From contig CANFOS010000013.1 of assembly GCA_947448735.1 (NCBI GenBank), positions 18,397 through 82,396 on the forward strand: a DNA stretch of 64,000 nucleotides, read 5' to 3'. The notes below the pieces were generated by a model. It was not told where the DNA came from, ran no database searches, and saw only the letters and a program-made list of their open reading frames with translations. This document shows, piece after piece, positions 29,686-31,653 of this stretch. How positions within the stretch are numbered: the stretch's first letter is position 1; each line of letters begins with the position of its first letter. The stretch is from Comamonadaceae bacterium (GTDB lineage Bacteria > Pseudomonadota > Gammaproteobacteria > Burkholderiales > Burkholderiaceae_C). Position numbers and translations under genes: made by a program.

Positions 29686-31653
29686 ATGCTGTTTTCAAGA
29701 CTCTCCGGGTTTGATCCATCGAACCTGGTCAAGCTTCCAATGCTCGAGCGCTGGAAGTTGGAGATGTTCAGCCTGTGGGCCATGCTCGGTGCGCTGGGGT
29801 GCTCGGCAGCCGCGGCGTACCTGTTTTTCATCACGACGCGGTCTTACGCTTTTGCCACAGTGGCTGCGGCCACTGTGGCCATTTGTTTTTTTGCTGTTCA
29901 AGCGTTGCTCAATTCAAACCGAGGACTGCCGCTCGGCGCCACAGCTGATGTCATCGCCCCCCCTGATGCCAAACAGTTTCACATCATTGTTTACCTGCTT
30001 TTGACATTGGCGTTCACGCAGCCCATCCTGATTTTTGCAAGCAAACTGCTTGATCAACCCAAGATCAACGAGCTCAACCGGCTTGAATCCCAGTTGCGTG
30101 TTCAGGGGCTCATTGATGCACACACCTCAGCACAAGCCCAGCTCAAACGCGATCTCGCCAAAATCAGGGAAAAAATCAACACACTCGGCGGCAATTTAAG
30201 TCTCTATGTCTCCAATGAGGAGCTGGCGCTCCTCGACAACGTCACCCCACAAGGTCCTGCCCCTGCAGGCGCTGCCCCTCTTGGCACTGCCCCTGCTGGC
30301 CCTGGCCAGTCAATGAATTTGGCATCTGCCGCTCGCAAAGCCTTGGTGATTGGCAACAACGCATACTCGGAAAAGCCTTTGCAAGGGCCTGTTCGCGATG
30401 CCAAAGCCATGAAAATAAAATTGGAAAAAATGGGCTTCGCAGTCACGCTGCTGACCGATGCCACACGCCTTGCCATGGAGCAGCAGCTGGTGGACTACGT
30501 CAACACCCTGAAGCCGGGCGACATCAGTTTCGTGTACTACAGCGGTCACGGCACCCAAGTTCGAGGCGTCAATTATTTCGTTCCGGTGGACAAAGCACAG
30601 AGTCTCGATGACTATGTGTCGATCAATAAGCTCATGCAAATGCAGCGTGATAAATCCATCCTCGCGAACATCATCATGACGGACGCCTGCCGAGCCAACA
30701 GCAGCTATGAGACCGGCTTTGACTCCACGGGTGCGAGTCGAAACACCTACATCGCGATGGCCGCAGCTGCCGGTGAGTTTTCTTATGACGGCATACCGAA
30801 TGGCGTATTCACGACCCGGGTGCTCAAACACATCACTGACGAAAAAGACATCGACACAATTTTCAATACGATCAAAGAAGAGATGGCTCGCGACCCTTCT
30901 GTGAAGCAACACCCGACCGCCATCAATTTCTTGGAAGAGCCCATCATGCTGGCGGTTCAAAAAGCACCCCCTCGCCCAGCAGCTTCAGCGCCATCCGTGC
31001 AAACAAGCAGCAACACGCCGGGTAGACGCTTGCAGTGCATCAATACCAAGATCACGTCCGATCCTGAGTTTGATCGCCAAGGCTTGCTGAACCAATGTGT
31101 CAGTGAATTCCTCAGAATCAAAGACGACGTTCTGGAAGACAAACAAGTCGCCACGCAAACGCAAAGCGAGTTGGAAGAAAAACTCAAACTCAGGTTTTCT
31201 GAAGACCAATTCAACCCCATCTATTTTTTCAACTACCTCTGGTCAAGTCAGGTGGTGAACTTATCAGACTCGGGCACCTCGAGCATCAAACCTGCTTACC
31301 GCTCCGCTTTGCTCAGCTTGCTGATTTGGTTTCTTTTGGCGGGTGGGTTTGTTTACCGTGAAAACCAGGCAGGCACTCAAAACGCTTACCGAGAATTCAG
31401 GGTGGAAGAAGAAAACGGGGAGCTTCAGACCGTTTACCGCAAGTACAGTTTGCTGGCAAATGAGGCCCTGAACCAATTCAAGGGCAAACTGGGCCGCGCG
31501 ATCTCGTCACCGTCATTGCTCAACCCTGACTTGTCAGCGCATCTGCCAGATCCGTTCTCGGACGACGAAGACGTTGCCAATCGCAAAAACACGCATTACC
31601 TGACCGATCAGGAAGCCATCGACCAATTGAAGAAATCTCTGAGGTCCACATGA
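29686..31653 (+). CDS. membrane-anchored caspase-family (C14) protease
   Basis: Caspase p20 'RKALVIGNNAYSEKPLQGPVRDAKAMKIKLEKMGFAVTLLTDAT', His motif 'SFVYYSGHGTQV', Cys motif 'NIIMTDACRANSS'; flanked by N-terminal TMs and a C-terminal TM 'SALLSLLIWFLLAGGFVY'. Confidence 0.87.
   Translation: MLFSRLSGFDPSNLVKLPMLERWKLEMFSLWAMLGALGCSAAAAYLFFITTRSYAFATVAAATVAICFFAVQALLNSNRGLPLGATADVIAPPDAKQFHIIVYLLLTLAFTQPILIFASKLLDQPKINELNRLESQLRVQGLIDAHTSAQAQLKRDLAKIREKINTLGGNLSLYVSNEELALLDNVTPQGPAPAGAAPLGTAPAGPGQSMNLASAARKALVIGNNAYSEKPLQGPVRDAKAMKIKLEKMGFAVTLLTDATRLAMEQQLVDYVNTLKPGDISFVYYSGHGTQVRGVNYFVPVDKAQSLDDYVSINKLMQMQRDKSILANIIMTDACRANSSYETGFDSTGASRNTYIAMAAAAGEFSYDGIPNGVFTTRVLKHITDEKDIDTIFNTIKEEMARDPSVKQHPTAINFLEEPIMLAVQKAPPRPAASAPSVQTSSNTPGRRLQCINTKITSDPEFDRQGLLNQCVSEFLRIKDDVLEDKQVATQTQSELEEKLKLRFSEDQFNPIYFFNYLWSSQVVNLSDSGTSSIKPAYRSALLSLLIWFLLAGGFVYRENQAGTQNAYREFRVEEENGELQTVYRKYSLLANEALNQFKGKLGRAISSPSLLNPDLSAHLPDPFSDDEDVANRKNTHYLTDQEAIDQLKKSLRST

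What the first reader, a model, noticed from the sequence alone, without database searches (positions are those of the whole stretch)
29686..31653. Caspase domain appears inserted into the loop of a DUF4407-type membrane scaffold
All three membrane proteins (28303, 29686, 31650) share a layout: a TM pair, a 'RLxxxLxxGxxxSxPLxxxxxxxEL'-like segment or hydrophobic equivalent ending in 'P.LIFASKLLDQPKINEL', a charged region, then a last TM and a soluble tail. In the neighbours the loop is a coiled coil. In the caspase gene a p20-like domain occupies that place. This suggests duplication followed by domain insertion, with the three proteins forming a hetero-oligomer.
Basis: inference. Interest (0 to 1): 0.72.

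Follow-up and report, generated by a model that had tools for sequence, protein, structure and literature searches.

The report
Caspase inserted into DUF4407-like membrane protein
In a freshwater betaproteobacterium, a caspase-type protease is held inside the loop of a four-helix membrane scaffold encoded in a small mobile gene cassette; a related operon in another bacterium carries the same scaffold without the protease, so the protease looks like a swapped-in module, but what it does has not been tested.

Summary
Gene 29686-31653 encodes TM1-TM2-TM3, a large loop, TM4 and a soluble tail, like its DUF4407 neighbours (28303, 31650), with a catalytically complete caspase domain (residues 215-425) in the loop. 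Three lines support insertion. (1) A distant proteobacterial contig (G823/L043) has the same gene order, but its middle gene is a caspase-free homologue of the flanks (hhalign 96%, E 2e-9 over TM1-TM3). (2) The caspase flanks match a 16-sequence DUF4407 profile over TM1-TM3 in register (92%, E 6e-7; score 56.5 against at most 33.5 in 300 shuffles). (3) In a relative at about 50% identity, flanks and caspase keep 46-56% identity while the two linkers keep 10-15%. The C-terminal half shows no detectable similarity to DUF4407, so that part of the claim rests on topology and the caspase-free homologue. 'Duplication' is plausible; 'hetero-oligomer' is untested. The three genes belong to a five-gene run plus a convergent secreted-protein gene that recurs in four Burkholderiales loci with different neighbours. 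Preferred mechanism: an inner-membrane, peptidoglycan-anchored complex holding an Arg/Lys-specific caspase on the periplasmic side, activated by proximity. Not found in the literature held.

The parts
25937..27706 (+). 589-aa protein: N-terminal Cys-rich (zinc-ribbon-like) cytoplasmic part, about 4-5 TMs (residues 274-399), C-terminal OmpA peptidoglycan-binding domain (474-571)
   Evidence: Pfam OmpA E 2.7e-13; hydropathy; orthologues in L036 and L038, partial in L037; short homologue of its soluble domain in L043
27713..28306 (+). 197-aa soluble protein, no known family; overlaps next gene by 4 bases
   Evidence: no Pfam/NCBIfam match; orthologues in L036, L037, L038 and L043
28303..29664 (+). 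DUF4407 protein A: TM1-3, helical loop, TM4, 96-aa tail
   Evidence: Pfam E 9.3e-46; AlphaFold helical loop
29686..31653 (+). caspase gene of the finding (655 aa)
29773..30183 (+). DUF4407-like N-terminal half: TM1 (residues 30-51), TM2 (54-77), TM3 (100-119), helical arm 1 (120-166)
   Evidence: hhalign against DUF4407 profile E 6.1e-7 over residues 2-119; against caspase-free homologue E 2e-9
30211..30327 (+). Ala/Pro-rich linker 1 (residues 176-214), 10% identity to L038
30328..30960 (+). caspase domain (residues 215-425)
   Evidence: Peptidase_C14 E 9.6e-32; MALT1 paracaspase E 3.4e-17
30547..30549 (+). catalytic His288 (GHG), aligned with MALT1 His415
   Evidence: invariant in 4 of 4
30688..30690 (+). 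catalytic Cys335 (DACR), aligned with MALT1 Cys464
   Evidence: invariant in 4 of 4
30961..31029 (+). linker 2 (residues 426-448), 15% identity to L038
31036..31194 (+). helical arm 2 with Cys451 and Cys471, a Cys pair kept in all caspase versions and in the caspase-free homologue (C197/C216)
31294..31650 (+). TM4 (537-558) and 97-aa tail
   Evidence: TM4 motif LAGGF(V/L)xR(E/D) shared with L043 homologue, hhalign score 28.8 against null maximum 21.3
31650..32699 (+). DUF4407 protein B: TM1-3, helical loop, TM4, 72-aa tail; overlaps caspase gene by 4 bases
   Evidence: Pfam E 1.2e-10
32701..33156 (-). convergent gene: 151-aa protein with signal-peptide-like N-terminus and four conserved Cys; candidate periplasmic partner
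   Evidence: conserved in L036, L037, L038
23192..25726 (+). DUF3857/transglutaminase-like gene plus 151-aa secreted-looking gene; travel with the cassette in L036 but not in L038; membership doubtful

Best explanation
The gene encodes a DUF4407-like four-TM scaffold into whose loop, between TM3 and TM4 and near the turn of a helical hairpin, a complete caspase (paracaspase-like) domain with flexible linkers was inserted. It works as the protease subunit of an inner-membrane complex made with two other DUF4407 paralogues, a peptidoglycan-binding OmpA-domain membrane protein, a soluble cytoplasmic protein and probably a secreted four-Cys protein. Shown: domain insertion, conserved active site, conserved gene set. 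Inferred: loop and caspase on the periplasmic side; complex formation; activation when scaffold rearrangement brings caspase domains together (as MALT1 is activated by dimerisation); cleavage after Arg/Lys of an envelope protein, perhaps the secreted partner; purpose envelope-damage response or phage defence.
For: Caspase-free homologue in the same gene order (p27713 - DUFA - MID - DUFB) in L043: hhalign of caspase flanks against MID 96.3%, E 2e-9 over TM1-TM3; MID TM4 motif match above all 200 shuffles. Caspase flanks against DUF4407 profile 92%, E 6.1e-7, residues 2-119 on 26-153 in register; 300 block shuffles reach 33.5 against 56.5; reversed profiles 22.6-22.9; the caspase protein ranks directly below the six DUF4407 proteins among 114 membrane proteins. 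Linkers 10-15% identical to L038 while flanks and caspase are 46-56%. Gene set conserved in L036, L037, L038 with different neighbours. Catalytic His/Cys and the residues aligned with MALT1 S1-pocket acids (D238, D333, E364) invariant (role of these acids in MALT1 from own knowledge). Cys451/Cys471 pair conserved even without the caspase and charges favouring N-in (loop 1-2 has 0-2 K/R, loop 2-3 has 1-6) suggest an oxidising, periplasmic loop. OmpA domain anchors to peptidoglycan.
Against: The C-terminal half has no detectable similarity to DUF4407. The AlphaFold model of the caspase protein is poor (mean pLDDT 42.5), so there is no structural confirmation. The charge bias for topology is weak. 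No experimental or literature link of DUF4407 to any function was found. Only one caspase-free homologue was found, and the G823 contig ends about 313 bases beyond its last gene. No interaction evidence beyond gene order.
Confidence: 0.6

Rival explanations
1. Same insertion, but the loop faces the cytoplasm (N-out topology), so the caspase cuts cytoplasmic targets, as a classic abortive-infection effector.
For: Some bacterial metacaspases with TMs are predicted to be cytoplasmic (PMC3501461); charge bias is weak; helical arms may be cytoplasmic signalling arms.
Against: Conserved Cys pair in the loop; positive loop 2-3 in L043 MID (6 K/R in 16 residues) against 0 in loop 1-2; N-termini without a signal sequence; a secreted protein is co-conserved.
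Confidence: 0.25
2. The caspase protein is unrelated to DUF4407: a caspase that independently acquired three N-terminal and one C-terminal TM, and sits by chance next to DUF4407 genes.
For: C-terminal half not similar to DUF4407; DUFB alone against casp is not significant (hhalign E 0.03); single-sequence comparisons are weak.
Against: Significant in-register match of TM1-TM3 to the wider DUF4407 profile with shuffle and reversal controls; caspase-free homologue between the same two DUF4407 genes; conserved association down to about 40-58% identity.
Confidence: 0.07
3. The caspase version is ancestral and L043 lost the caspase (deletion instead of insertion).
For: Only one caspase-free homologue is known.
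Against: The paralogues DUFA and DUFB and the other DUF4407 proteins collected lack the caspase, so a caspase-free ancestor is simpler.
Confidence: 0.1

Closest known systems
DUF4407 (PF14362) membrane proteins
   Same: TM1-TM3 homologous in register; 3+1 TM layout; Pro-ended TM3; soluble tail of similar length (97 against 96 in 28303)
   Different: carries a caspase in the loop; is not hit by the Pfam model itself; C-terminal half not alignable by profile
Prokaryotic caspase homologues (orthocaspases/bacterial metacaspases, family C14); MALT1 paracaspase is the nearest solved structure
   Same: complete His/Cys dyad (GHG, DACR) and conserved acids at the MALT1 S1 positions
   Different: built into the middle of a four-TM scaffold; surveyed bacterial forms with TM helices mostly have a single N-terminal one (PMC3501461)
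Zorya ZorA/ZorB, MotA/MotB, Tol-Pal
   Same: membrane proteins plus an OmpA-like peptidoglycan-binding domain; ZorB models match the OmpA part only (E 2.5e-7)
   Different: no MotA/ZorA-type protein recognised among the cassette proteins scanned; DUF4407 scaffolds instead; caspase as the enzyme

Membership tests
DUF4407 (PF14362) | score above Pfam gathering cut-off | tested here: not met
   no PF14362 match for the window caspase protein (up to E 1) or its L037, L038 and L043 homologues (up to E 10)
DUF4407 (PF14362) | TM1-TM3 homologous to the family | tested here: met
   hhalign E 6.1e-7, shuffle and reversal controls
DUF4407 (PF14362) | last TM and tail homologous to the family | tested here: inconclusive
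   no profile similarity, TM4 present at the expected place
Caspase family C14 | p20 domain with catalytic His and Cys | tested here: met
   PF00656 E 9.6e-32; H288, C335 invariant
Caspase family C14 | proteolytic activity | not testable with these tools
   needs assay
MALT1-type basic specificity | acidic S1 residues at positions of D365, D462, E500 | tested here: met
   D238, D333, E364 aligned and invariant; residue roles from own knowledge
Zorya | ZorA (MotA-like) plus ZorB | tested here: not met
   PADLOC scan finds only the OmpA part of ZorB models and no ZorA

The most novel reading that the evidence does not exclude
An undescribed mobile, envelope-spanning system in which a periplasmic Arg/Lys-specific caspase is displayed on one of three DUF4407-like scaffold subunits and is switched by peptidoglycan- or membrane-level damage, with interchangeable versions of the scaffold with and without protease.
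Probability: 0.35. Interest if true: 0.8.

Novelty: new variant of a known kind. Interest (0 to 1): 0.6.

Why it matters
DUF4407 is a family without assigned function; only three papers in the library held contain the name, none with it in title or abstract. A natural pair of scaffolds, one with and one without a caspase in the same operon position, gives a handle on what these scaffolds do: they can host an effector that must be controlled from the membrane. It also adds a case of a caspase wired directly into a polytopic membrane protein, possibly on the periplasmic side, which bears on what bacterial caspases sense and cut.

Tried and rejected
Searches for close relatives in 300 genomes of the family by the N-terminal part (one spurious hit in an O-antigen polymerase-like ORF), in 399 of the order by the full protein (caspase-domain matches only), in plasmids and in viral contigs gave no second caspase/DUF4407 protein; the genome-contig scan gave three, and a DUF4407-A profile found one more carrier genome among 87 congeners (by coordinates and contig number probably the L036 genome). 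The first profile comparison (caspase N-part against the 28303 family only) was weak (E 3e-4) and became convincing only with a wider DUF4407 set. AlphaFold of the caspase protein was too poor to use for fold search, and the 28303 model is confident only in the loop, so no fold search was run. Membership in Zorya was considered because of the ZorB hit and rejected.

Full report
Observation. The gene at 29686-31653 encodes 655 residues with hydrophobic segments near 32-50, 57-75, 100-118 and 538-556. A Peptidase_C14 domain spans 217-412 (E 9.6e-32). The neighbours 28303-29664 and 31650-32699 are DUF4407 proteins (E 9.3e-46 and 1.2e-10), paralogous to each other (hhalign 98.8%), each with three TMs, a charged helical loop, a fourth TM and a soluble tail.

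Relatives and gene set. A scan of genome contigs with the two flanks of the caspase protein joined gave three loci: L036 (96% identical over the whole protein), L037 (84%) and L038 (47%), all labelled Burkholderiales/Comamonadaceae/Burkholderiaceae MAGs. The set is 25937 (OmpA domain), 27713, 28303 (DUF4407 A), 29686 (caspase), 31650 (DUF4407 B) and the convergent 32701-33156; L036 and L038 hold all six, and L037 holds all with its contig starting inside the OmpA gene. Neighbours outside the set differ: in the window dnaX follows, whereas in the congener G1275 (by coordinates and contig number the L036 contig) the cassette is on contig C44 and dnaX on C28. Only two of 87 genomes of the genus carry the DUF4407-A gene. 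The cassette is therefore accessory and found in different sites. Genes 27713/28303 and 29686/31650 overlap by 4 bases (ATGA), compatible with translational coupling.

Test of insertion. A DUF4407 search of the phylum found G823, whose 6-kb contig (L043) has the order p27713-like, DUF4407 A (39% identical), a 347-aa middle protein, DUF4407 B. The middle protein has no caspase. A profile of the caspase protein's flanks matches it at 96.3% probability, E 2e-9, over TM1-TM3, and the TM4 motif LAGGF(V/L)xR(E/D) is shared (score 28.8 against 21.3 at best in 200 shuffles). A Cys pair 19-20 residues apart in arm 2 is also shared. Between window and L038, TM1-3 plus arm 1 are 55% identical, the caspase 56%, arm 2 to tail 46%, but the two linkers only 10% and 15%. 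This is the pattern of an inserted module. Since the DUF4407 paralogues and the other DUF4407 proteins collected lack a caspase, insertion is the simpler direction.

Test of kinship with DUF4407. Against the DUF4407 A profile alone the match was weak (E 3e-4 to 8e-4). Adding DUF4407 B and six DUF4407 proteins from other genomes gave 92.1%, E 6.1e-7, score 56.5, aligning residues 2-119 with 26-153 of 28303 in register. Controls: reversed profiles scored 22.6 and 22.9; 300 block shuffles that keep the hydrophobic pattern reached at most 33.5; among 114 membrane proteins the caspase protein ranked directly after the six DUF4407 proteins. These E-values are for single comparisons. The C-terminal half showed nothing (E 0.1-0.19), and neither the window protein (up to E 1) nor its L037, L038 and L043 homologues (up to E 10) hit the Pfam model. 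The proper statement is: the N-terminal half is homologous to DUF4407, the C-terminal half is compatible in topology but not shown to be homologous.

Caspase domain. The nearest solved structures are MALT1 paracaspase (E 3.4e-17). His288 and Cys335 align with the catalytic His415 and Cys464, and D238, D333 and E364 with D365, D462 and E500, which I recall as forming the S1 pocket for arginine. All five are invariant in the four orthologues. I predict cleavage after Arg/Lys. Other bacterial caspase homologues are described as cutting after positively charged residues (PMC6426788, abstract).

Topology and mechanism. Even TM number puts both ends on one side. Loop 1-2 carries 0-2 and loop 2-3 1-6 K/R, strongest in L043 (6 in 16 residues), favouring N-in and thus a periplasmic loop; the conserved Cys pair fits an oxidising compartment; a secreted four-Cys protein is co-conserved; the OmpA domain would bind peptidoglycan. 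I judge the periplasmic side at about 0.65. The working model is a peptidoglycan-anchored inner-membrane complex of three DUF4407-like subunits, one carrying the caspase, activated by rearrangement. Complex formation, trigger and substrate are inference. A published survey reports that about 15% of bacterial metacaspases have TM helices, most of these a single N-terminal one (PMC3501461); nothing like the present architecture was found in the papers searched.

Verdict. Observation confirmed; insertion interpretation supported; duplication likely; hetero-oligomer untested.

Noticed in passing
window 32701-33156 (-): Convergent gene for a secreted-looking protein with four conserved Cys, kept in all four caspase cassettes; possible substrate or inhibitor.
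   Followed up: partly
window 23192-25726: DUF3857/transglutaminase-like gene and a 151-aa gene travel with the cassette in L036 but are absent from L038.
   Followed up: partly
L049 7950-9100 and L050: Viral contigs of 249 and 158 kb encode a DUF4407 protein that is open only if TAG is read as an amino acid (TAG=Q), suggesting stop-codon recoding.
   Followed up: no
L043 4539-5018 (-): The related operon has a 160-aa homologue of the soluble domain of 25937 without TMs or OmpA domain.
   Followed up: no
L043 313-1707 (-): DUF4407 B of this operon has an extra C-terminal extension (tail 210 aa against 72-75), another sign that this scaffold accepts extra domains.
   Followed up: no
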